NCBI RefSeq assembly: GCF_000024725.1
Contig: NC_013960.1
Coordinates: forward strand, 434,001-498,000
Reading direction: 5' to 3'
DNA: 64,000 nt
DNA from: Nitrosococcus halophilus Nc 4
GTDB taxonomy: Bacteria; Pseudomonadota; Gammaproteobacteria; Nitrosococcales; Nitrosococcaceae
The notes under the pieces are model-generated. The model was not told the DNA's origin. It was given only the letters and a program-made list of their open reading frames with translations, and did not search any database. Both the position numbers and the translations under genes were made by a program. Below are positions 16,513-30,271 of this stretch, in pieces. Position 1 is the stretch's first letter. Every line of letters begins with the position of its first letter.

Positions 16513-16747
16513 AAATTTAATCCTTAGTCATTACCATAATGGCCGTTTTAATGAATCAGCATTATGGCACTGGGAAGAAAACCTTGGCCAGTTGGAGCAG
16601 TCTGAGAAATATAGACAGGGGATGGCAAATGGTAGAATTGAATTTTTAATCGGGTATTTTTTGGCTATTTCTCGTCGAAGTAATAAGAGACAATAATATC
16701 TTGCCGTTATTTGGCGTGGTGACAAGCAAGGGACAGACTGTAATTTG

Positions 16748-18490
16748 ATGGTGCAACAACTTGAAAAGACGGTTCCCATTACGCCTACTTCTGGAGAGGA
16801 GGCGGTTCCCCAGAGTTTTGAGGAGGAGCTGGGTCAATATTTAATTGACCGGAGCAAACTGCGCGCAGCTGAATTTCGCCATGCTCGCCGTTTGGCGGCG
16901 GAGGAAGGTGTGCGGCTTTCCGTCATGTTGATAAGACTAGGGCTGGTCTCTGAACGGGACATGGCAGAGGCCTTCTCCGCATTGCTTGATCTGCCCCTGT
17001 TGGCAACCAACGATTATGATAGCGGAGGGCTAAATGGCCAGGTTTCATTGCGCTTCCTCAAAGAATCCCGGGCGGTGCCGGTGTTAGAGGAAGAGGACGC
17101 AGTGGTGGTAGCAATGGCCGATCCTAGCGATCGTTATGTCCAGGAGGCCATTGCCCTCGCCTACGGCAAACCCATAAGCCTGCGGGTTGGTTTACCCTCG
17201 GAGATCGAAGCGGCCCTTGAACGTCAGGCAGGAGGTAAATCGGCGATGGGGCAGATCGTCGAGCATCTCGGGGCAGACGAGGAGGCGGAGACGGATGTCC
17301 AACATCTGAAGGATATGGCCAGCGAGGCCCCGGTCGTACGCCTCGTGAATTTACTGATCCAGCGAGCGGTGGAATCCCGGGCTTCCGATATCCATATCGA
17401 GCCTTTTGAGAACAGTCTTCGAGTCCGCTACCGGATTGATGGGGTGTTGCGAGATGTGGAGGCTCCCCCGGCGCGCTCTACGGCAGCCGTGATTTCCCGC
17501 TTTAAGATTATGGCTAAGCTCAATATTGCTGAGCGGCGATTGCCTCAGGATGGACGAATCCAGCTTCGTATCCAAGGGCGGGAATTGGATTTGCGGGTTT
17601 CCACGGTGCCGACCCTCTATGGCGAAAGTGTAGTACTGCGGCTGCTAGATAAGGGGAGTGTGGTGCTCGATTTTGATTCCTTGGGTTTCCAAGGCAGCAC
17701 CTTAGAGCGGTTTCTCCGGGTATTAGAGATGCCCCATGGGATTATTATCGTGACCGGTCCCACCGGCAGTGGTAAAAGTACTACCCTTTACACGGCCCTA
17801 CATAAGCTCAATACCCCGGATCGAAAGATTGTGACCGTGGAAGACCCGGTGGAATATCAGCTTGAAGGGATTAATCAAATTCAGGTGAAGCCTCAGATTG
17901 GCCTCACTTTTGCCGGTGCCTTGCGGTCTATCGTGCGCCAGGACCCGGATGTCATCATGATCGGTGAAATGCGGGATCGGGAAACCGCTGGCATCGCCGT
18001 TCAATCGGCCCTGACGGGCCATTTGGTCCTTTCTACCCTCCATACCAATGATGCCGCAGGCGGGGTTACCCGGTTATTGGATATGGGCGTGGAAGATTAT
18101 CTTCTGACCTCCACCGTTAATGGTATTTTGGCGCAACGCCTGGTTCGTACCCTCTGTAAGCATTGCGCCGAGCCTTACGAGGCTATGCCCGAGATAATAG
18201 AGGAGCTGGAATTGCACCGTTTTAGCGAGGAGAAGCCGGTAATGTTGTATCGCCCCGTTGGCTGTGAACACTGTAACGGCATTGGTTATCATGGCCGGGC
18301 TGCGATTATGGAGTTTTTGGTCATGAGTGACCCTATTCGTCGTCTCGTGCTCCAGCATGCCGATGCGGGAAATATCCAGGACCAGGCCCAGAAAGAAGGC
18401 ATGCGGATTATGTATGAAGATGGTCTTCTCAAGGCGCTATCCGGCCTCACCACCATTGAAGAGGTGATCCGAGTCAGTCAGGAGTCCTGA
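16748..18490 (+). CDS. gspE: Type II secretion ATPase GspE
   Basis: About 580 residues from ATG 16748. An N-terminal GspE domain (RLGLVSERDMAEAFSALLDL; VVVAMADPSDRYV) precedes the ATPase domain. Walker A is GPTGSGKSTTLY (about residue 337), Walker B is DVIMIGEMRDRETA, and a C-terminal zinc site is formed by CKHC and CEHC. The protein powers pseudopilus assembly at the inner membrane. It is the first gene of a tightly packed gspE-F-G-H-I series (2 bases to gspF). Type IV pilus PilB is the main alternative, but the following major pseudopilin gene with its GspG-type fold favours type II secretion. Confidence 0.95.
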   Translation: MVQQLEKTVPITPTSGEEAVPQSFEEELGQYLIDRSKLRAAEFRHARRLAAEEGVRLSVMLIRLGLVSERDMAEAFSALLDLPLLATNDYDSGGLNGQVSLRFLKESRAVPVLEEEDAVVVAMADPSDRYVQEAIALAYGKPISLRVGLPSEIEAALERQAGGKSAMGQIVEHLGADEEAETDVQHLKDMASEAPVVRLVNLLIQRAVESRASDIHIEPFENSLRVRYRIDGVLRDVEAPPARSTAAVISRFKIMAKLNIAERRLPQDGRIQLRIQGRELDLRVSTVPTLYGESVVLRLLDKGSVVLDFDSLGFQGSTLERFLRVLEMPHGIIIVTGPTGSGKSTTLYTALHKLNTPDRKIVTVEDPVEYQLEGINQIQVKPQIGLTFAGALRSIVRQDPDVIMIGEMRDRETAGIAVQSALTGHLVLSTLHTNDAAGGVTRLLDMGVEDYLLTSTVNGILAQRLVRTLCKHCAEPYEAMPEIIEELELHRFSEEKPVMLYRPVGCEHCNGIGYHGRAAIMEFLVMSDPIRRLVLQHADAGNIQDQAQKEGMRIMYEDGLLKALSGLTTIEEVIRVSQES

Positions 18491-18492
18491 TC

Positions 18493-19725
18493 ATGGCCGC
18501 TTTCCATTACAAGGCAACGACTTCGAGCGGGGAAATCCTGGAAGGGGAGCGTCGGGCTGATCACGAAGCGAATGTGGTCGAGTGGCTGCATTCTCAGGGC
18601 TATATCCCCATTCGCATTGAAGAGGCCGCCGCTGGGGGGCGAGGTCGATCCCGTCAGCGGGTTGGTAAAGGCTTATTTGGGGGTAAGAAAACGGTCCGCC
18701 AAAACGATGTGGCTGTGGTGACGGGAGAATTAGCCACCTTGCTTCGTGCCGGCTTGCCCCTGGATAGGGCCTTTAGTACTTTGATAGAGATTGCGGAGGA
18801 GGGGCCCGTTAGAGAAATTTTGACCCGCCTTCAGGAGCAAGTGCGGGGAGGAGCTTCCCTGGCGGAAGCCATGGAATCCCAGGGGGAGACCTTTTCTCCT
18901 CTCTATATCAGCATGATCCGGGCAGGCGAGGCAGGCGGGGCCTTGGATGTGATCCTGGGGCGGCTGGCCGATTTTATGGAACGTTCCAAGGCGTTGAAAA
19001 ACGCCGTTACCTCGGCCCTCATCTATCCCGCCATTTTGGTGGGGGTTGCCGGGCTCTCCGTAATTATCTTGTTGGCCTTTGTGGTTCCCCAGTTCCAACA
19101 GTTATTTGAAGATGCCGGTAAAGCCTTGCCCCTGGCAACCCAGATAGTGATTGCGGCAGGGGATCTTCTCCAGAATTATTGGTGGGCGCTTTTACTGGGT
19201 TTTTTGGCTGTCCTATTGTTGCTTCGCTATCAGCTCCAGGTTCCGGAATACCGCTATCGATGGGACGGTTGGCTGCTGCGGTTGCCACTGGCCGGCGATT
19301 TGATCGCCAAGCTGGAGATGGCGCGGCTTTCCCGTACCCTGAGTACCTTGCTGCTTAATGGGGTGCCTTTGTTGTCGGCACTGGCAATCATCAAAGATAC
19401 TTTGGGCAATCGGGTGATGGCAGAGGCCCTCAATGAAGTGGCTGACGAGCTACGCCAGGGGCATGGAATGGCGGATCCTTTGCTGGAGACGGGCCTGTTT
19501 CCAAAAATGGCGGTGCAAATGATCAAGGTGGGTGAAGAAACCGGTCAGTTGGAAGATATGCTAGGTCAAGTGGCTGAAACTTATGATGTCGAAGTGGAGT
19601 CCACTATCAAGCGCCTATTGGCCTTATTGGAGCCGGTCCTGATCCTGAGCCTGGGGGTGATTATTGCCGGGATTATTATGTCCATATTGGTCGCTATTTT
19701 GAGTGTGAATGAATTGGCCTTTTAA
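18493..19725 (+). CDS. gspF: Type II secretion inner-membrane protein GspF
   Basis: 410 residues, the normal length. It has two repeated T2SSF domains: one around ELATLLRAGLPLDRAFSTL and another around LSRTLSTLLLNGVPLLSAL. Membrane segments are near residues 170-195, 220-245 and 375-405, the last being VLILSLGVIIAGIIMSILVA. GspF is the polytopic platform protein that links the ATPase to the pseudopilus. It starts 2 bases after gspE. Confidence 0.96.
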   Translation: MAAFHYKATTSSGEILEGERRADHEANVVEWLHSQGYIPIRIEEAAAGGRGRSRQRVGKGLFGGKKTVRQNDVAVVTGELATLLRAGLPLDRAFSTLIEIAEEGPVREILTRLQEQVRGGASLAEAMESQGETFSPLYISMIRAGEAGGALDVILGRLADFMERSKALKNAVTSALIYPAILVGVAGLSVIILLAFVVPQFQQLFEDAGKALPLATQIVIAAGDLLQNYWWALLLGFLAVLLLLRYQLQVPEYRYRWDGWLLRLPLAGDLIAKLEMARLSRTLSTLLLNGVPLLSALAIIKDTLGNRVMAEALNEVADELRQGHGMADPLLETGLFPKMAVQMIKVGEETGQLEDMLGQVAETYDVEVESTIKRLLALLEPVLILSLGVIIAGIIMSILVAILSVNELAF

Positions 19726-19740
19726 AACGAGGAGATTTTG

Positions 19741-20175
19741 ATGCAACGAAAGAGATTAAGGCATGCGGGTAGTTTCGGTTTTACTCTCATTGAATTACTT
19801 GTCGTACTTGTCATCTTGGGGTTGTTGGCAGGGTTAATTGGTCCCCAGGTGATGAAGTATTTAGGCAGTGCCAAGACTGACTCGGCCCGTCTCCAGATTG
19901 AAGATCTGGCCGCTACGCTTGATCTCTACCGCCTGGAAGTTGGGCGCTATCCTTCCACCGAGGAAGGGCTCCAAGCCCTGGTGGAAGCACCTCCGGGGGC
20001 CAACCGTTGGAATGGTCCCTATTTAAAGAAAAGCCAGGTGCCGGCAGATCCTTGGGGGTATGACTATCATTATCGTTCACCCGGCGAACACGGTGCTTTC
20101 GATATCTATTCCCTGGGTGCTGACAATGCCGAAGGGGGGGAAGGCGAAAATCAAGATATTGTGAGCTGGAAATAA
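19741..20175 (+). CDS. gspG: Major pseudopilin GspG
   Basis: About 144 residues. A prepilin leader ends at Gly before FTLIELLVVLVILGLLAGLI, with Glu at mature position 5. The C-terminal half has the GspG pattern GRYPSTEEGLQALV, WNGPYLKK, PADPWGYDY and FDIYSLGADN, the calcium-binding loop region. This protein forms the body of the pseudopilus. The start is ATG 19741 after a gaggag ribosome binding site; a TTG lies one codon upstream. Confidence 0.97.
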   Translation: MQRKRLRHAGSFGFTLIELLVVLVILGLLAGLIGPQVMKYLGSAKTDSARLQIEDLAATLDLYRLEVGRYPSTEEGLQALVEAPPGANRWNGPYLKKSQVPADPWGYDYHYRSPGEHGAFDIYSLGADNAEGGEGENQDIVSWK

Positions 20176-20217
20176 AAGCAAGTCGCTGAGTTTCTGGTAG
20201 GGAGGGAGAGAGCCGTT

Positions 20218-20754
20218 ATGGGTAGTGTGGGCGAGGCATACCAATGGGCCATGACTAGATATTCTCCCTCCCCCTCCCGGCAGGGGCGGCCCCCATTATC
20301 GGCAGTTCCTCGGTTTAAGCCCCAAAGCGCGTTTACTCTGATTGAGTTGCTGGTCGTTTTGGCGCTCGTGGCGGTGCTGATGACCTTAGTGCCTCCTTTT
20401 TTGCAAGGAGGCGTTTCCGGTGCTGAGCTGAAGGGGACCGCTCGAAAACTGGCGGCAGCATTAAAATATGTCCGCAGCCAAGCGATTACTCAACATCGGG
20501 AAGCCGTCTTGATACTGGATTTGGAACGCCGGCGTTTTATGATTACGGGTAGAAAGCGCCACTATCCCATTCCGGACAATATGGAGATTTCCCTTGTCAC
20601 TGCCCGCTCGGAGTTGGAAACCGAGCGCATTGGTAAAATCCGGTTCTTTCCTGATGGCACTTCCACCGGTGGACGCATTACCCTGGCCCAGGGCGAGAGT
20701 CAATATGGGGTTGATGTCAATTGGCTGACCGGTCAGGTGGTCATCCTTGATTAA
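20218..20754 (+). CDS. gspH: Minor pseudopilin GspH
   Basis: 178 residues. The prepilin cleavage site is unusually far in: residues 1-38 form a long, proline- and serine-rich leader before FTLIELLVVLALVAVLM. The start at 20218 has a strong agggagggaga ribosome binding site, so the long leader is probably real, although ATG 20251 would give a shorter one. The C-terminal part (IRFFPDGTSTGGRITL) is typical for GspH/FimT. Its end overlaps gspI. Confidence 0.88.
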   Translation: MGSVGEAYQWAMTRYSPSPSRQGRPPLSAVPRFKPQSAFTLIELLVVLALVAVLMTLVPPFLQGGVSGAELKGTARKLAAALKYVRSQAITQHREAVLILDLERRRFMITGRKRHYPIPDNMEISLVTARSELETERIGKIRFFPDGTSTGGRITLAQGESQYGVDVNWLTGQVVILD

Positions 20755-21190
20755 ACGCGACCGCGGTTTTTCCTTGTTGGAAGTGTTGGTGGCCTTTGCT
20801 ATTTTGGGCATTTCACTGGGGGTGTTGCTCCAGATTTTTTCCACTGGCATGCGGACGACGACCTTATCGGAAGAATATACCCGCGCCACCTCCTTAGCCG
20901 AGTCCAAGCTTGCCACCATTGGGGTAGAAACGCCTTATTTAGAGGGGATTGAAGAAGGACAATTCGATGAGAAATATGCCTGGCGCACGACCATCCTTCC
21001 CTATGAAGAACCCGAGGAAGAACGAGAAAAAAGACTCGGTGAAGGTTTTGATGATGCGGTAAATTTACCCGCGTTACCTTACACGGTCAAAGTGGAGGTA
21101 TTTTGGGAAACGGGAGGTAAGGAGCGCCGGGTTGTTCTTGAGACTTTACGTTTGGGATCCCTGTCACAATCGCAATCCCAACTACAATAG
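20747..21190 (+). CDS. gspI: Minor pseudopilin GspI
   Basis: 147 residues starting at a TTG that overlaps the gspH stop by 8 bases. Leader MIKRDRG is cleaved before FSLLEVLVAFAILGISLGV, with Glu at position 5. The later region YAWRTTILPY fits the GspI fold. It would sit at the pseudopilus tip with GspJ and GspK. Neither gspJ nor gspK follows here, so the tip complex is incomplete at this locus. Confidence 0.88.
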   Translation: MIKRDRGFSLLEVLVAFAILGISLGVLLQIFSTGMRTTTLSEEYTRATSLAESKLATIGVETPYLEGIEEGQFDEKYAWRTTILPYEEPEEEREKRLGEGFDDAVNLPALPYTVKVEVFWETGGKERRVVLETLRLGSLSQSQSQLQ

Positions 21191-23745: not shown

Positions 23746-24679
23746 AGCACCATAAGATAACTGAATTAAGGGTCAGTGAATTAAGGGTCAGGTCTTGTAG
23801 TGCATATACGAGCTATAGCAGGATTTAAAACTAGTAGCTAAGTTAAGCTCGACTTTATCCATATATGTGGCATAACAAAGCGTGTCGGTCAGGCGTTCGA
23901 AAAGAGAGCGGGAAATTTTTATCATTTCGGGGTGAGAAGGCGACATTGTCATTCTGGCTGCCCGGGTCGGCGCATAGAGCGCGGCATCTAGATGCAATCG
24001 CGTCATACAATAAATCGGTCGGGAGTATTTACGAGCCGGGCCAGAAAATCAAAAGCTGCAAATCCGGGTAAGGAGATGACAGTTTAATTACCCTTGGGTT
24101 TATCCTCAATCATCCTCAAAAATGGATAAAGTCGAGAACCATGTAAAATATTCCCATTGACTATGGTTACTTCTTCACAACCTTTATCTGAGTGTTTTTG
24201 CTATGTTAGTACTTAAGGTGAGTGGGATATGTTTCTAGTGTAAGGGTCTAGCTACAACTATTTTTTAGTGAAATTTTAAGCAGGAAATTCTGCTCGCTTT
24301 GTATAAACAGTAGTGCTATTTGCTAAATCTATTTATGGGCACCTCTAAAAATTGCTTTTTTAAAATTTTGATGCTCATTAAATCAATCACTTATAATAAA
24401 AAAGCCTCCGGGTTTTTGAATTTTTAGAGGTGCCCTTATGTTAAAGGGCGTTGCAGCCTATTTAGCCCTCTGATGGCCCAGGGAAGGGCTGTTTTTTTTA
24501 CCAGAGAATTTTCTAGTATTACCATTGGCACTGCTAATTAGTTTTTTGATTATTTAGATAATAGTCTCATATTGAATATCTATCCAGGCCTGCTAAGGTG
24601 GCATATGATGCTATCCGGGGCCGAATTTGAATATAAGAAACTAAATTAACGCCATCACACAGCGAAGTGGAGGCCTAGC
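23746..24679. other. Long AT-rich intergenic region with small repeats
   Basis: No credible gene is seen in 934 bases. The word tgaattaagggtcag is repeated twice in perfect tandem at 23762-23791. Such gggtcag words often flank remnants of REP-associated or IS elements, but no transposase motif is readable. A MITE-like element is at 24337-24435. The base composition is clearly more AT-rich than the genes to the left. Confidence 0.5.
24337..24435. mobile_element. MITE-like element, 99 bp, perfect 17-bp terminal inverted repeats
   Basis: The ends are gggcacctctaaaaatt (24337-24353) and its exact reverse complement (24419-24435). The word ttat stands directly outside both ends, consistent with a 4-base target duplication. 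There is no coding capacity. The ends look like those of an IS5-type transposon, which would supply the transposase in trans. Confidence 0.8.
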
Positions 24680-25150
24680 ATGGTGAGTGCCCAATCAAGC
24701 ATCGTGATAGTTCGACCCGTCGATGATGTGTTCCAATTCATATCGGTGAATTTTTTCCAGAATTATCCTAAATGGTCCCCTGAAGTCGTAGAGCTAGAGA
24801 AGCTTTCTGACGGACCGGTGAAAGTAGATACCCTGGGAAGGCAAATCAGGAATGATCAGGGGCGCCGCACCGAGTCTAGGTTTCGCGTCACCCAATTTGA
24901 ACCTAATCGGTGTTTTTCCTGTGAGGGCACTGCCCAGACCCCTTTTCGGGTGATTTACAATTTTGAATCTTTCGATCAAGCGACAAAGGTTAAGTTTACC
25001 TTCGAATTATTAAGGGTTGATTTTTTTATGCGGCCATTTGAAAAGCTTATTGAGGCGGCTATCCGGGGAGGAGCAGACAGAGTGATGCATAACCTAAAAG
25101 GACTACTCGAAGAAGAAGCAACGGAGCCCTCAGGTTCTGCCAAGCGTTAA
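24680..25150 (+). CDS. SRPBCC-family (polyketide cyclase/dehydrase-like) protein
   Basis: 156 residues. The pattern IVIVRPVDDVFQFISVNFF, NYPKWSPEVVELE, GRRTESRFRVTQFEP and a long C-terminal helix ending VMHNLKGLLEEE fits the START/SRPBCC helix-grip fold, which binds hydrophobic ligands. No catalytic residue can be assigned. The ribosome binding site gtggagg is close to the ATG. It is flanked by non-coding AT-rich DNA on both sides and by two copies of a diverged 30-base motif (near 24553 and 25268). Confidence 0.8.
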   Translation: MVSAQSSIVIVRPVDDVFQFISVNFFQNYPKWSPEVVELEKLSDGPVKVDTLGRQIRNDQGRRTESRFRVTQFEPNRCFSCEGTAQTPFRVIYNFESFDQATKVKFTFELLRVDFFMRPFEKLIEAAIRGGADRVMHNLKGLLEEEATEPSGSAKR

Positions 25151-25758
25151 TGCGAGGTGTCCTGGCAATCGTGGACACTCTTGTTTCAAACAATCCACTG
25201 TTTCAACGAAAAAATTCTACATCCAGTATCCTGCTGCTTCCTTCCGGGTTATTCGATGTTAATTAAATAAATAGCCTCATATTAAATACCTATCTAACGC
25301 CCAATCCACATAAAGACTTCGCCTTTTCAATCCTAGGAAAAAGCCCCGTTCCCTCACAAGGACTAATTTTGTTCTTACTTTCATACCGTGTGAGCTAGAG
25401 GGGTATCGCGAGCTTCCATGTTTCTTCAAAGCTAATGGCAGAGAAAATAATGAGCCCTTTGTAGTGTTTCTTTTTTAAAGACTCTTTGGTTTTTTTGTTT
25501 CCTAAAAACCAACAACTATGACCTCGGCAATAAAAACGGAATCCTTGAACGACAGGAATTTTATTTATATTTAATTAAAAAAATCAAATACTTATAATGT
25601 TTAAAGAAGTTTAATAATTAAACTGGCACGAAGCCTGCTCATCATCAGATGTGCCATGAAATAATCCCTGAAGATTGTACATGGATAGACCTGCAAACGG
25701 CACATTTTGCAGAGTCAAGAGCTCAATGATATTTAATTTTGATAAAAGGAGAAGAGAG
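25151..25758. other. AT-rich intergenic region
   Basis: No gene is recognisable. At about 25266-25297 there is a diverged copy (atagcctcatattaaatacc) of a motif also found at about 24557-24588 (atagtctcatattgaatatc). The last 200 bases are strongly AT-rich and probably contain the promoter of the exported protein at 25759. Confidence 0.45.
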
Positions 25759-26217
25759 ATGAAATCAACTACTTTGATCACACTTGCGGCCCTTGGATCT
25801 TTTGCCTTCTATGGTAATGCATATGCTGAAAATGGGCATGCCTATAACGGTAGCTTCTGTGATAACTACTATGGTAGCCAGGTTGGTAATTTCAATCATC
25901 AACATAATGGGATTAAAAATAATACCAATTCCGGGCGTTATGTTTCCTGTCCCGTTATCGTAGATGAAATCGCTAAAACTACGGGCACTACTCGGGTATG
26001 GCTGTACTACTCAGGTAGCGGCAAGATTAGTTGCTCGATGTTTAGCAAAAATGGCAATGGGACAACACGTCAGTCTAAAATGGGTAGCCGCACAAATAGC
26101 GGTTGGTTCTCAATTCCAGCAATTACCAGCGACAACTATTGGGGTAGCTATTCGATGTATTGCTACCTCCCGCCCAAAGGTATTTTAAAGACCATTTGGG
26201 TAGGTGAAAAAAGTTAG
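25759..26217 (+). CDS. Exported protein of unknown function, Tyr/Ser/Asn-rich with cysteines
   Basis: 152 residues from ATG 25759, preceded by aaggagaagag. A signal peptide ends at AYA (MKSTTLITLAALGSFAFYGN then AYA). The mature protein of about 130 residues is rich in Asn, Ser, Gly and Tyr and has four cysteines, in FCDNYYG, VSCPVIVDE, KISCSMFS and MYCYLPP, which could form two disulfides. The composition suggests a small beta-rich secreted domain. I do not recognise the family. The next gene follows after 46 bases and is also exported, so the two probably form a unit. Base composition is AT-rich compared with the housekeeping genes. Confidence 0.7.
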   Translation: MKSTTLITLAALGSFAFYGNAYAENGHAYNGSFCDNYYGSQVGNFNHQHNGIKNNTNSGRYVSCPVIVDEIAKTTGTTRVWLYYSGSGKISCSMFSKNGNGTTRQSKMGSRTNSGWFSIPAITSDNYWGSYSMYCYLPPKGILKTIWVGEKS

Positions 26218-26263
26218 TTGGTTCGCAACTTCATTAATATTGCTGATATAAAGGAGAATCTTC

Positions 26264-27046
26264 ATGAAAGCATCCCACCTCCTGATTGTTACTGGTAGTC
26301 TTGCCGCATTATCTCTAAGTTTCTATGTTACTAAGTTCAGTCATATAGAGGATGTAGCGTTACCTTCAAATGATACGCTGCCTTCAACGGATATAGCAAA
26401 ATCTAGCTACCAAGCTAATGATTATGGAGGTGGGATTGCTCCCACCTTAGCAGCCTTGAAAGAAGAAGTTTCCTTACTGAAGGCAGAATTCAGCACCTTG
26501 AAAAAATCAAGCATTGGCTCGAGTGGTCTGAAAAAGGAATTTTTTAGACTCAAGGAAGAGGTTGCAGCCCTGCACCAGAAGGTTGGAAATACTTCTGCCA
26601 TGAGCGAATACTATAATAATACAGAAGATGTAGCAGATTCTCCTGGAGAGATGGCGCTTACGGAGCAGGATATTGTGGCTGCTACTCAGCGACAAGCCTA
26701 TGAAGACCACAAACAGATGGAGGTTATAGATAGTGTTTTTCTGTCAGAGAATATTGATTATCAATGGTCGGCACAGACAAGCGACCTTATCGCTCAAAAT
26801 TTAGAGAATAGTGAACAGATAAAGACTGACTTAGAAAGTTTGGAATGCCGAGCAACTTTATGTCGGGTTGAAGTCAATCATCATGACGCCTCAATCGCTG
26901 AGGAATTTGAACTCCAGTTTCCTCTACAGGTGGGTGAGGCACTTCCTCAGATTAATTATCTTTATGAGCCGCAGGACGATGGGAGCGTAAGTGTAGTGAT
27001 GTACTTAGCTCGAGATGGCTACGATCTCCCCCAGGTCATCCAGTAG
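26264..27046 (+). CDS. Membrane-anchored or exported coiled-coil protein of unknown function
   Basis: 260 residues. The N-terminal hydrophobic segment (HLLIVTGSLAALSLSFYVT) lacks a clear cleavage site and may be an anchor. Residues about 60-115 form a heptad-like coiled coil (LAALKEEVSLLKAEFSTLKK; FFRLKEEVAALHQKV). The C-terminal domain contains the pair LECRATLCRVEVNHHD, a CxxxxC arrangement I recall from other uncharacterised periplasmic proteins. No enzyme motif is seen. Ribosome binding site aaaggag precedes the ATG. A strong hairpin downstream at 27106-27142 probably ends the two-gene transcript. Confidence 0.7.
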   Translation: MKASHLLIVTGSLAALSLSFYVTKFSHIEDVALPSNDTLPSTDIAKSSYQANDYGGGIAPTLAALKEEVSLLKAEFSTLKKSSIGSSGLKKEFFRLKEEVAALHQKVGNTSAMSEYYNNTEDVADSPGEMALTEQDIVAATQRQAYEDHKQMEVIDSVFLSENIDYQWSAQTSDLIAQNLENSEQIKTDLESLECRATLCRVEVNHHDASIAEEFELQFPLQVGEALPQINYLYEPQDDGSVSVVMYLARDGYDLPQVIQ

Positions 27047-27105
27047 CCTTGGATATCCATCCAAAGTTTTGGCCCCCATAGTTGTGCATCAGTGAGCTTG
27101 TGTAT

Positions 27106-27142
27106 AGGGCAGTGGTAGAACCTAAATATCTGCCACTGCCCT
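27106..27142 (+). terminator. Strong hairpin, probable terminator
   Basis: agggcagtggtaga pairs with tctgccactgccct over 14 positions (one G-T wobble), with a 9-base loop. It lies 60 bases after the coiled-coil gene. The T-run that follows (ctcggctttt) is weak and slightly displaced, so termination is likely but not certain. Confidence 0.6.
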
Positions 27143-27391
27143 GCTCGGCTTTTAGCCGTTTAGGGGGATGCGCAGAGAATATTATTTTAATCAGTAATTT
27201 ACAGTAGCCTATTGTGATGGTGGGTGCTGGTGCTGTTAGCCCTACTGTATAAATAGCATAAGTTTGGAACTCTGGTCTTTCTAGGGGGTCTTATCGGTAC
27301 TTCTTAAAGAACCTTATCCTTACGTTCCTAAGCGTGCCAATCTCTAGGCATCGCAGGTCGTAACGCTACTGTCAGCGCGAGGAGGTGGACA
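27143..27391. other. Upstream region of the hydroxylase-like gene
   Basis: No gene seen. The last bases (gaggaggtggaca) form a strong ribosome binding site for the GTG start at 27392. Confidence 0.4.
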
Positions 27392-28267
27392 GTGACGGCC
27401 TCAGCTACTTCCCTACAGCCGGTGAACACTCACATTGAGAGTGGTGAGCCCGCGGTGTCTATGTTCGCTTCATTGGGCATCGAAGATGTTCTGATGATGA
27501 CGGTGTTTGGCGTATTTTTTTTGCTGTTGGTAATGGAAGTCGTGCATCCCTATAGGCGATTCGCAACAAAAATAGCTCGGGCTTCTCTTACGACAAACAC
27601 TACTGCGTTCCTGTTCAACGATGTGATCCTAACCCTTGTGTCCATATCGTCATTATTCTTAATTGCACAGCAATATTCACACCTAGGTCTGTTAAGTAAC
27701 CTTGATGATGGTGTTTTCAAATGGCTGCTGTCTTTCTTGCTATTCGATCTTGCCCTTTACGGGTGGCACGTTGCTAGCCATCGCTTTGAGTTTTTATGGC
27801 GATTTCACAAAATTCACCATAGTGATAAAAGCCTTAATGTCAGCACTGGCTTTCGTTTCCATGTATTCGATCAATGTTTAGAAGTAATTTACAAGTGTCT
27901 ATTCGTCATAGTGGTGGGAGTTAATGCTTATGTGGTCCTAGTGTGTGATCTCACTAAAACGCTTTTCGTACTCTTTCATCATAGCAATATATCGTTTAAA
28001 GGCGAGAAATGGCTATCCAAAATTATTATCGTGCCTACTCTTCATCGGGTTCACCACTCGACTTTGAGAAGCGAGCACGACAGTAACTATGGTATCGTTT
28101 TATCGATATGGGATCGCTTGTTTGGTACCCGTAAAGAGTTAGTTCCAAAGAAAATTGGGTTGGAGTTAGTTCAAGCAGATAATTTAGTTCAACTCTTTTG
28201 CCTTGCTTTTATTACAGAACGTCGCATAGCAAGAATTTTTCATATGATTCCAAAAGGTAAGCGTTGA
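27392..28267 (+). CDS. Fatty acid hydroxylase / sterol desaturase superfamily membrane protein
   Basis: 291 residues starting at GTG 27392 behind gaggagg. Several membrane segments are visible (DVLMMTVFGVFFLLLVMEVV near residue 32; LVSISSLFLIAQQY; WLLSFLLFDLALYGW). The di-iron histidine clusters are complete: HVASH, FHKIHHSDKSLN, LFHHSN and HRVHHS. Enzymes of this superfamily hydroxylate or desaturate lipid chains at the membrane using O2 and a reductase partner, which is not seen nearby. The substrate is unknown; the genomic setting is accessory. Confidence 0.9.
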   Translation: MTASATSLQPVNTHIESGEPAVSMFASLGIEDVLMMTVFGVFFLLLVMEVVHPYRRFATKIARASLTTNTTAFLFNDVILTLVSISSLFLIAQQYSHLGLLSNLDDGVFKWLLSFLLFDLALYGWHVASHRFEFLWRFHKIHHSDKSLNVSTGFRFHVFDQCLEVIYKCLFVIVVGVNAYVVLVCDLTKTLFVLFHHSNISFKGEKWLSKIIIVPTLHRVHHSTLRSEHDSNYGIVLSIWDRLFGTRKELVPKKIGLELVQADNLVQLFCLAFITERRIARIFHMIPKGKR

Positions 28268-29073: not shown

Positions 29074-30271
29074 CTGATCTCATACGGGTCACGATTAAAA
29101 ACCGAAGAGAGGTTGTTCCCGTGCCTGTGAAGAAGATTTTACACCGGATGTTGTCGGAGATCATGCATTTAAAACGCTTGTGGACGTTGGTGTTGTTGGT
29201 GGAGACGGTCTTGGAGACGAAGCGGTTATCGGTAACCCAGCTGGGTCGGTCATTGAAGTTACCGATTCAAGAGCGCAGTGGGATACGGCGGTCGGACCGA
29301 TTTATGGGGAATAAGTACGTCCAAGCCCAAAGCAAAGCGGTGTATGAGGCGTTAGTCAAGCAGCTGGTGGGAAACAAACGGCGGCCGTGGATACTGGTAG
29401 ATTGGAGTCATCTACCGAACACAGACTTGTATGTATTGCGGGCGGCATTAGTGGCGCCGGGACGGGCGTTGACCCTGTATGAGACGGTCCATGCGCAATC
29501 GCAGCAGGGGAATGAGCGCGTGCAGCGAGCTTTTTTAAAGACGCTCAAGGCGTTGTTACCGGCGGCGAGTCGGCCCGTGATTATCACGGACGCCGGATTT
29601 CATAATCCCTGGTTTAAGCAAATTGTGAGTTATGGCTGGGATTACGTAGGCCGGATCCGGGGGCGAAAATCCTACCGACCGGTGGGGGAGCGGGAATGGC
29701 GGCCCTGCCGAGAATTATGGGCGCAAGCCAGTGGCCGAGCGAAGGCACTCGGAGCGGTAGAGATGTGTCGTAAGAACCCGTTAAAGAGTAGGTTCTATTT
29801 GTTCAAAGGAAAAGCCCGGGGTCGGCATGGCAAGTCGATAGCCGAATACCGTCTGGCGGCGAAGGAGCCGTGGTTGTTGGCCAGCTCCTTGTGCGGTCGT
29901 CAATCGGCCAAGCGCGTGGTGAAACTCTATCGTACGCGGATGCAGATTGAAGAAGGGTTCCGGGATTTGAAAAGTCCAGCCTATGGCTTCAGTTTTAATC
30001 TGGCCTATAGTCGTGACCCGCACCGCATTGAGGTGTTGCTGTTGATTGCGGCTTTGGCAGGCATGGTGGCCTGGGCCGTGGGTTGGCTGACAGAGCGGCA
30101 ACAATTACATTATCAGTTTCAGGCCAATTCGATAAAACATCGGCGCGTGCTCTCTCTATTCTATCTAGGCTGCCAAGTGATTCGACGAAAAGTAAGGGTA
30201 ATCGTAAGTGAACAAAGTATCCGTGAGGTTTTCGATGCTATCGAAAATGAAGGATGCCCCCCATGAAACAG
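29074..30271 (+). mobile_element. IS4-family (IS10-like) insertion sequence, approximate ends
   Basis: One transposase gene fills the element. Proposed ends are ctgatctcatacggg at 29074 and the reverse complement of the right end, ctgtttcatgggggg at 30271, which match imperfectly with one gap. No 9-base duplication is seen outside these ends, which fits an adjacent deletion that also removed part of the phosphatase gene. The end positions are tentative. Confidence 0.7.
29121..30266 (+). CDS. IS4-family transposase (IS10 group)
   Basis: 381 residues from GTG 29121. The protein follows the IS10 transposase layout: HLKRLWTLVLLVETVLETKR, LGRSLKL, RRSDRFMGN, ILVDWSHLPN (first D), VIITDAGFHNPWFK (second D) and YRTRMQIEEGFRDLKSPAYG (the Y-R-E-K signature with the catalytic E). 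No stop or frameshift interrupts it. Length is slightly below IS10 (402 residues). Confidence 0.94.
   Translation: MPVKKILHRMLSEIMHLKRLWTLVLLVETVLETKRLSVTQLGRSLKLPIQERSGIRRSDRFMGNKYVQAQSKAVYEALVKQLVGNKRRPWILVDWSHLPNTDLYVLRAALVAPGRALTLYETVHAQSQQGNERVQRAFLKTLKALLPAASRPVIITDAGFHNPWFKQIVSYGWDYVGRIRGRKSYRPVGEREWRPCRELWAQASGRAKALGAVEMCRKNPLKSRFYLFKGKARGRHGKSIAEYRLAAKEPWLLASSLCGRQSAKRVVKLYRTRMQIEEGFRDLKSPAYGFSFNLAYSRDPHRIEVLLLIAALAGMVAWAVGWLTERQQLHYQFQANSIKHRRVLSLFYLGCQVIRRKVRVIVSEQSIREVFDAIENEGCPP

What the first reader, a model, noticed from the sequence alone, without database searches (positions are those of the whole stretch)
25759..27142. Two-gene unit encoding unrecognised exported cysteine-containing proteins in an AT-rich island
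A small Asn/Tyr-rich secreted protein with four cysteines is followed by an anchored coiled-coil protein with a CxxxxC motif. Both have good ribosome binding sites, and a strong hairpin ends the unit. Composition differs from the housekeeping genes, and the flanks hold MITEs and IS elements. They could be a secreted factor and its partner, but nothing proves a function.
Basis: partly seen in the sequence, partly recalled or inferred. Interest (0 to 1): 0.5.

Follow-up and report, generated by a model that had tools for sequence, protein, structure and literature searches.

The report
Exported protein with membrane-anchored partner
A small exported, cysteine-bonded protein and a membrane-anchored partner gene travel together in distantly related bacteria; the partner's outer domain is predicted to resemble parts of the type II protein secretion machine, so it may be a dedicated helper that gets the first protein out of the cell.

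Summary
Gene A (25759-26217; signal peptide, 4 Cys) and gene B (26264-27046; N-terminal membrane helix, coiled coil, C-x4-C) are real genes under purifying selection without a meaningful Pfam or NCBIfam match. They form a conserved module: 12 of 15 A matches and 14 of 21 B matches among 369 gammaproteobacterial genomes lie beside the other gene, as do 7 of 7 named loci (Lysobacter, five Corallococcus, one MAG). A and B distances correlate (Mantel r 0.62, 16 pairs), and two pairs in one genome keep partner identity. A is predicted, at moderate confidence, as a carbohydrate-binding-module-like beta-sandwich. B's C-terminal domain is predicted ferredoxin-like; its best solved matches are GspL, GspM and PilO, platform proteins of type II secretion (T2SS) and type IV pili. 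GspL occurs in 19 of 19 tested carriers with an intact gene. Best reading: A is an exported cargo, B its membrane-anchored T2SS chaperone or adaptor, analogous to LipB/Lif and CpaB. Secretion is untested.

The parts
25759..26217 (+). Gene A: exported 152-aa protein, 4 Cys, predicted beta-sandwich
25759..25827 (+). Signal peptide of A (residues 1-23; cleavage after AYA inferred)
   Evidence: sequence; residues 1-31 of low pLDDT
26264..27046 (+). Gene B: 260-aa membrane-anchored protein, partner of A
26285..26356 (+). B membrane anchor (helix, residues 8-31)
   Evidence: hydrophobic stretch; helix 8-31 in a low-confidence part of the model
26438..26746 (+). B long helices / coiled-coil region (residues 59-161), poorly conserved (38-43% identity for residues 32-160 between congeners)
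26756..27016 (+). B C-terminal ferredoxin-like domain (residues 165-251), 72-74% identical between congeners; GspL/GspM/PilO-like predicted fold
26846..26863 (+). B C-x4-C motif (Cys195, Cys200), between the first two strands of the predicted domain; Cys at both positions in 21 of 21 aligned B
25744..25758 (+). Ribosome binding site region of A (AAAAGGAGA)
26250..26263 (+). Ribosome binding site region of B (AAAGGAGA)
27105..27143 (+). Strong 15-bp hairpin after B, not followed by a T-run

Best explanation
A is a Sec-exported cargo: a small disulfide-stabilised beta-sandwich protein, possibly glycan-binding, that folds in the periplasm. B is its dedicated helper, held in the inner membrane by one N-terminal helix, with a periplasmic coiled coil and a ferredoxin-like domain of the GspL/GspM/PilO kind. 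Most likely B receives A in the periplasm, makes or keeps it export-competent, and hands it to the type II secretion system, as the membrane-anchored chaperones LipB/Lif and CpaB do for their cargos. Shown here: two real conserved genes, their adjacency, their co-divergence, and T2SS GspL in the tested carriers. Predicted: both folds and B's topology. Inferred: binding of A by B, T2SS dependence, glycan binding, and the disulfide pairing C34-C64 / C92-C135 (the Corallococcus A aligned lack the first two Cys together and keep the last two).
For: Adjacency: from the A side 12 of 15 matches (in 13 of 369 genomes), from the B side 14 of 21 matches (in 16 of 369 genomes); 7 of 7 named loci, order swapped in Lysobacter; in one Lysobacter and five Corallococcus genomes the only A match lies beside the only strong B match. 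One genome has three tandem A genes followed by one B-like gene. Each of 18 A and 21 B used in the profiles is still recognised by a profile built without it and its near relatives (worst E 7e-8 for A, 1.4e-17 for B). Co-divergence: Mantel r 0.62 (p 1e-4, 16 non-redundant pairs); in G083 one pair is closest to G238's pair and the other to G266's, for A and for B alike. B fold: the top three aligned rows are EpsL (Z 8.4), XcpY (8.2) and PulL (7.9), and 10 of the first 16 rows are T2SS/type IV pilus platform chains; the helix-strand-strand order, twice, is the permutation called rare for GspL in PMC6233222 (passages). T2SS: GspL family over cut-off in 16 of 16 tested non-Nitrosococcus carriers against 67 of 117 other genomes of the class sample (one-sided p 2.9e-4); the window's genome has a divergent GspL and T2SS E, F, G and H genes in the window. 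Harding et al. (PMC4713064; passages, section 15) define T2SS chaperones as adjacent, N-terminally anchored, periplasm-exposed proteins required for secretion of their effector; adjacent pairs in their table are -17 to 132 bp apart and lipB can lie upstream of lipA; here the spacer is 46 bp.
Against: No secretion or binding was measured. T2SS is common in the class (73 of 124) and the test ignores kinship and genome size; congener G003 and relatives G004 and G005 have GspL but no A or B. By the Pfam model alone the window's own genome has no GspL match and G001 and G002 only sub-cut-off ones. G172, which holds only a broken A-like fragment, belongs by its handle number to the sample and is not among its GspL matches; it was left in the 117. 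In two congeners no T2SS E-H homologue lies within the 18-kb stretch around the pair. The B model is weak overall (pLDDT 60.6, pTM 0.49, 8 sequences); blocks from residue 141 to 250 range from 62 to 92. No Foldseek match of B passes E 0.001 and its first row is a designed protein; a best Z near 8 is usual for models without a clear match (note). Profile comparison of B with GspL or GspM, two sequences each, gave nothing (probability 0.1-0.3%). Five of 29 B loci lack an A and one intact A inside a contig (G097:C47) lacks a B. The B beside A in G189 is only weakly matched and that in G750 not matched by the profile; both rest on layout and C-x4-C.
Confidence: 0.45

Rival explanations
1. A is an antibacterial factor acting in the envelope of neighbours and B is its inner-membrane-anchored periplasmic immunity protein.
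For: Small exported protein plus adjacent anchored partner, patchy distribution, co-divergence, orphan B genes and a tandem B locus.
Against: In A only Gly and Cys are invariant and one Pro nearly so (fewer), no catalytic set; B's conserved part is a shared domain rather than a variable interface; an A without adjacent B exists (G097:C47); no convincing PADLOC match (best E 0.037) and no Pfam toxin or immunity match.
Confidence: 0.15
2. B is a membrane sensor or tether for A at the cell's own envelope (signalling or surface attachment) and T2SS plays no part.
For: The predicted beta-sandwich of A resembles ligand-binding domains; B is anchored and has a coiled coil.
Against: B has almost no cytoplasmic part (the helix starts at residue 8); the GspL-like domain and GspL in the tested carriers would be coincidence.
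Confidence: 0.2
3. B is a general paralogue of the T2SS or type IV pilus platform that is only linked to small exported genes by shared transfer.
For: At some loci without A, B stands beside other exported or Cys-rich small proteins (L041, L042, L043).
Against: One-to-one pairing in Lysobacter and Corallococcus genomes and pairwise co-divergence, including two pairs inside one genome.
Confidence: 0.12

Closest known systems
Membrane-anchored T2SS chaperones (LipB/Lif lipase foldases; CpaB of Acinetobacter)
   Same: Encoded beside one exported protein, single N-terminal membrane helix (within residues 5-48 in the published table; helix 8-31 here), periplasmic C-terminal part, gene order can be swapped (PMC4713064, passages and section 15 read)
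   Different: Cargo is a small beta-sandwich of unknown role, not a lipase or protease; that paper predicts an SRPBCC-like periplasmic domain for CpaB, whereas B's is predicted GspL/GspM-like with a conserved C-x4-C; need for secretion untested
GspL / GspM (T2SS platform) and PilN / PilO (type IV pili)
   Same: Single membrane helix, membrane-proximal helices, periplasmic helix-strand-strand (twice) ferredoxin-like domain (PMC3815138 and PMC6233222, passages)
   Different: No sequence-profile match to GspL or GspM, no cytoplasmic actin-like domain, not in a gsp operon, conserved C-x4-C plus D165/W168, gene paired with an exported protein
Carbohydrate-binding modules of the jelly-roll kind (CBM61, CBM35, CBM16, CBM22) and Eph ligand-binding domains
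   Same: Predicted all-beta sandwich; CBM61 is the best Foldseek match (E 2.4e-4) and the N-terminal part of GlfT2 the best aligned (Z 9.3, rmsd 3.1 over 121 residues)
   Different: Identity 4-20% in the listed rows; no binding residues tested; two inferred disulfides; moderate model (pLDDT 63.7)

Membership tests
T2SS membrane-anchored chaperone (definition of Harding et al., PMC4713064) | Encoded adjacent to its cargo | tested here: met
   46-nt spacer here; A and B adjacent at 24 of 29 B loci collected. That A is a T2SS cargo is itself inferred.
T2SS membrane-anchored chaperone (definition of Harding et al., PMC4713064) | Co-regulated with the cargo | tested here: inconclusive
   Same strand, 46-nt spacer, no + strand terminator-like site listed between the genes; no expression data
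T2SS membrane-anchored chaperone (definition of Harding et al., PMC4713064) | N-terminal transmembrane domain with a periplasmic C-terminal part | tested here: inconclusive
   Hydrophobic helix 8-31; a conserved Cys pair fits the periplasm; topology not measured
T2SS membrane-anchored chaperone (definition of Harding et al., PMC4713064) | Required for secretion of a T2SS effector | not testable with these tools
   needs a deletion strain
GspL/GspM/PilO platform proteins | Periplasmic ferredoxin-like domain, helix-strand-strand twice | tested here: inconclusive
   Predicted order matches; Z 8.4, 8.2, 7.9 to three GspL chains, rmsd 2.3-2.8 over 77-80 residues; predicted model only, no Foldseek match at E 0.001
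GspL/GspM/PilO platform proteins | Sequence-family membership | tested here: not met
   No Pfam or NCBIfam T2SS/pilus platform family matched; hhalign probability 0.1-0.3% with two-sequence profiles
GspL/GspM/PilO platform proteins | Gene lies in the gsp or pil operon | tested here: not met
   In the window the T2SS E-F-G-H genes end about 4.6 kb upstream and GspL is elsewhere in the genome; no E-H homologue within 18 kb around the pair in two congeners
Carbohydrate-binding module | Jelly-roll fold | tested here: inconclusive
Carbohydrate-binding module | Glycan binding | not testable with these tools
   needs a binding assay

The most novel reading that the evidence does not exclude
B is a cargo-specific, exchangeable subunit of the T2SS inner-membrane platform: its GspL/GspM-like domain pairs with the GspL or GspM domain and docks one particular exported protein at the machine, so that new cargos come with their own docking gene. 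At B loci without A, other exported Cys proteins next to B would be further cargos of the same docking family.
Probability: 0.22. Interest if true: 0.8.

Novelty: new variant of a known kind. Interest (0 to 1): 0.52.

Why it matters
How the T2SS recognises its folded cargos is, to my knowledge, an old open question (recalled, not searched). A recurrent pair of an exported protein and an anchored partner with a platform-like domain, found in two phyla, would give a directly testable route: does the partner's ferredoxin-like domain bind GspL or GspM, and does it bring its own cargo? It also gives two protein families that Pfam and NCBIfam do not cover a shared context and a functional lead.

Tried and rejected
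Mobile element or phage origin: in viral contigs 67 stretches matched a pattern of B and 0 were confirmed; no A match in phage records (B was not searched there), no B match in plasmids. A had two weak plasmid matches (E 0.5 and 0.05): the first was opened and lies in a long unrelated frame, the second was not opened. Own-genome matches of A other than itself: L002 lies in what I read as the pntA/pntB region, L003 (E 0.03) was not inspected. Of B's weak matches, G120 was dropped because it covered only model positions 6-115 and the ORFs around look like bamA-skp-lpxD (my reading); L080 and L081 (E 7e-4, 8e-4) were dropped for lack of the C-x4-C domain.

Weak single-member family matches not followed: for A members Ephrin (E 9.7e-4) and CIA30 (0.0016), each 1 of 15, the first of a similar fold class (recalled), and an NCBIfam match of E 0.0095 in 1 of 18; for B members PspAB (0.0015), KIF9 (0.0026) and other mostly coiled-coil families in 1-2 of 18, and IcmG/DotF (4.9e-5) in 1 of 21. 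PDB sequence matches: NccX 0.016 and others above it for B, MS2 coat 0.059 and PapG 1.8 for A. Toxin domains in the fold lists of A (Vip3A, Cry11, iota toxin) reflect a common beta-sandwich and are not read as evidence of toxicity.

How the counts were made. Two A genes (G083:C57, G238:C1) were first recognised by eye next to B and then put into the profiles; the leave-out test supports both (E 6e-21 and 2e-14), though it reuses alignments made with them. In 12 of 15, the three misses are G097:C47, G365 (begins 26 bases from the contig end) and G172 (a fragment with two stops); G230:C8 (B truncated) and G189 (weakly matched B) count as adjacent. In 14 of 21, the misses are G104, G094:C139, G346, G239, two tandem B of G128, and G120. 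The total of 24 of 29 mixes A-led and B-led searches, counts G128 once, and includes G750 and G189. G120 (probable false match) and G172 stayed in the 117 of the T2SS control; G316 was not tested for GspL. A was searched in a phylum sample (2 of 398 genomes), B was not.

Literature: 7 searches. Nothing in the listings (titles and starts of abstracts) described this pair; most subscription papers are not held. Three papers were opened, in passages or one section only.

Full report
What was checked. Gene A starts at 25759 (ATG) and ends at 26217; gene B runs from 26264 to 27046. A has a signal peptide ending in AYA and four cysteines (34, 64, 92, 135); B has a hydrophobic N-terminal helix, long helices and a single cysteine pair C-x4-C (195, 200). 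Both have AAAGGAGA-type ribosome binding sites and a 46-nt spacer. A strong hairpin follows B at 27105-27143 (z -5.7) but has no T-run. GC is 0.425 and 0.434 against 0.534 on average for 29 other measured ORFs. A MITE-like repeat (24334-24441, three more copies in the genome) and an IS4 transposase (29121-30266) lie in the flanks.

Organism. The window lies in a genome of 4,145,260 bases with a chromosome of 4,079,427 bases. I recall these as Nitrosococcus halophilus Nc4, and G002 (contig of 3,481,691) and G001 (3,328,570) as N. oceani and N. watsonii; no tool named them.

Are the genes real? In two congeners the orthologues are 64-65% (A) and 54-57% (B) identical; between G001 and G002 dN/dS is 0.14/0.56 for A and 0.12/0.38 for B, so both are under purifying selection (against the window dS is near or past saturation). 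A third congener, G003, lacks both.

Family searches. Neither protein itself has a Pfam match at E 1 or a meaningful NCBIfam match; of the members of their alignments only single ones match unrelated families, weakly (listed under Tried and rejected). PDB sequence profiles gave nothing below E 0.016.

Distribution and adjacency. With profiles of A and B, 13 and 16 of 369 genomes of the class matched. Of 15 A matches 12 lie next to a B; the three others are G097:C47, G365 (at a contig end) and G172 (a fragment with stops). Of 21 B matches 14 lie next to an A; the others are G104, G094:C139, G346, G239, two tandem B at G128, and G120, which is probably a false match. The single scan of named genomes with B gave 7 loci, all with an A neighbour: Lysobacter antibioticus (order B-A), five Corallococcus (one genus, close relatives) and the MAG UBA6915, which carries the same proteins as G094. 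In the Lysobacter and Corallococcus genomes A has one match each and B one strong match each, side by side; two Corallococcus have a further weak B match without C-x4-C. Over a phylum-wide sample A is rare: 2 of 398 genomes; one of these, G750, has three A genes in tandem followed by a B-like gene with C-x4-C that the profile did not match. Altogether 24 of 29 collected B loci have an A neighbour; this total mixes A-led and B-led searches, so the 12/15, 14/21 and 7/7 counts are the fairer ones.

Are the distant members real? Each of the 18 A and 21 B in the profiles is recognised by a profile built without it and its near relatives: E from 5e-28 to 7e-8 for A (the weakest are Corallococcus) and from 6e-39 to 1.4e-17 for B. 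The alignments had been made with them, which helps a little. The B of G189 and G750 are not in these profiles and rest on layout and C-x4-C.

Co-divergence. For 16 non-redundant pairs the A and B distance matrices correlate (r 0.62, p 1e-4; 0.67 without Corallococcus; 0.87 for all 21 pairs). Kinship of hosts could cause part of this, but G083 carries two pairs: pair a is nearest to G238's pair in both A and B, and pair b is nearest to G266's in both, while the two A and the two B of G083 are far apart. Partners are inherited as pairs.

Cysteines. In the same set B's two Cys are in 21 of 21, A's third and fourth Cys in 21 of 21, and A's first and second in 18 of 21; the three Corallococcus A included lack both of the latter together. 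I infer bonds C34-C64 and C92-C135.

Structures. A: nine strands, all beta, mean pLDDT 63.7, pTM 0.61, 8 sequences. Foldseek's best match is the carbohydrate-binding module CBM61 (E 2.4e-4); after realignment the best rows are the N-terminal part of GlfT2 (Z 9.3), CBM22, a xylanase N-terminal domain, Eph ligand-binding domains and CBM16. This is a common arrangement, so I claim only a CBM-like beta-sandwich at moderate confidence. B: mean pLDDT 60.6, pTM 0.49; ten-residue blocks from 141 to 200 score 73-92 and from 201 to 250 score 62-85; the C-terminal domain is helix-strand-strand twice. Its best aligned chains are EpsL (Z 8.4, rmsd 2.3, 80 residues), XcpY (8.2) and PulL (7.9); PulM, EpsM and PilO score 6.5-6.8, and 10 of the first 16 rows are of this kind. 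In Foldseek no match passes E 0.001; the first row is a designed protein and the second XcpY, E 0.031, probability 1.00. The tool notes that a best Z of 7 to 8 is usual for models without a clear match, so the weight lies in the run of one family at the top and in the shared strand order. [quoted passage not shown] Profile comparison with GspL and GspM, two sequences each, is negative, so I claim resemblance, not membership. Within B the domain is conserved (72-74% between congeners) and the coil is not (38-43%), which suggests that the domain meets something constant and the coil or linker something variable (inference).

Secretion system. All 16 tested carriers outside Nitrosococcus (11 with an A-B pair, four with B only, one with A at a contig end) have the GspL family above its cut-off; in a class sample 73 of 124 do, or 67 of 117 after removing seven carriers (Fisher one-sided p 2.9e-4, no correction for kinship or genome size). 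Nitrosococcus has a divergent GspL: sub-cut-off Pfam matches in G001 and G002, none in G000 or G003, but a clear orthologue of the G001 protein in G000, G003, G004 and G005, of which only G000 has the pair. So 19 of 19 tested carriers with an intact A or B have a GspL, but GspL does not predict the pair. G172, with a broken A-like fragment only, appears to lack GspL. T2SS E, F, G, H and a fifth pseudopilin-like gene lie in the window at 16745-21190; in G001 and G002 no such gene lies within the 18-kb stretch around the pair.

Mechanism. Harding et al. 2016 (PMC4713064; [quoted passage not shown] adjacent pairs in their table are spaced -17 to 132 bp, and lipB may lie upstream of lipA. B fits the layout. 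I therefore propose that B is the dedicated anchored chaperone or adaptor of A. The step from layout to function is an inference. The bolder version, that B's domain docks into the GspL/GspM platform, rests on the predicted fold only.

Rivals. Toxin and immunity, envelope sensor or tether, and a linked platform paralogue were weighed; none is excluded. The conserved features of A (Gly, Cys, Pro) look structural rather than catalytic.

Verdict. A real two-gene module outside the curated families searched, with good evidence for partnership and a testable, unproven link to type II secretion.

Noticed in passing
24334-24441: MITE-like element with 20-bp terminal inverted repeats (95%), three further copies in the genome.
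   Followed up: partly
16745-21190: T2SS E-F-G-H genes and a fifth pseudopilin-like gene; the genome's GspL lies elsewhere and is a divergent form that the Pfam T2SSL model misses.
   Followed up: partly
L041 865-1467, L042 2358-2864, L043 2942-3256: At three B loci without A, other small exported or Cys-rich proteins with no Pfam match stand next to B; possible further cargos.
   Followed up: partly
L064 4043-6515: Three tandem A genes, a divergent B-like gene and a probable lipoprotein gene in a row on one strand.
   Followed up: partly
L021 4-1473: B of one pair is truncated by integrase-like sequence (my reading) while most of its A frame stays.
   Followed up: no
24680-25150: SRPBCC-type (Polyketide_cyc2) gene just upstream of A; PMC4713064 predicts an SRPBCC-like domain for CpaB too, probably coincidence, as I see no anchor in this protein.
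   Followed up: no
27392-28267: AT-rich fatty acid hydroxylase gene downstream of B, related to but below the cut-off of ornithine lipid hydroxylase OlsE.
   Followed up: no
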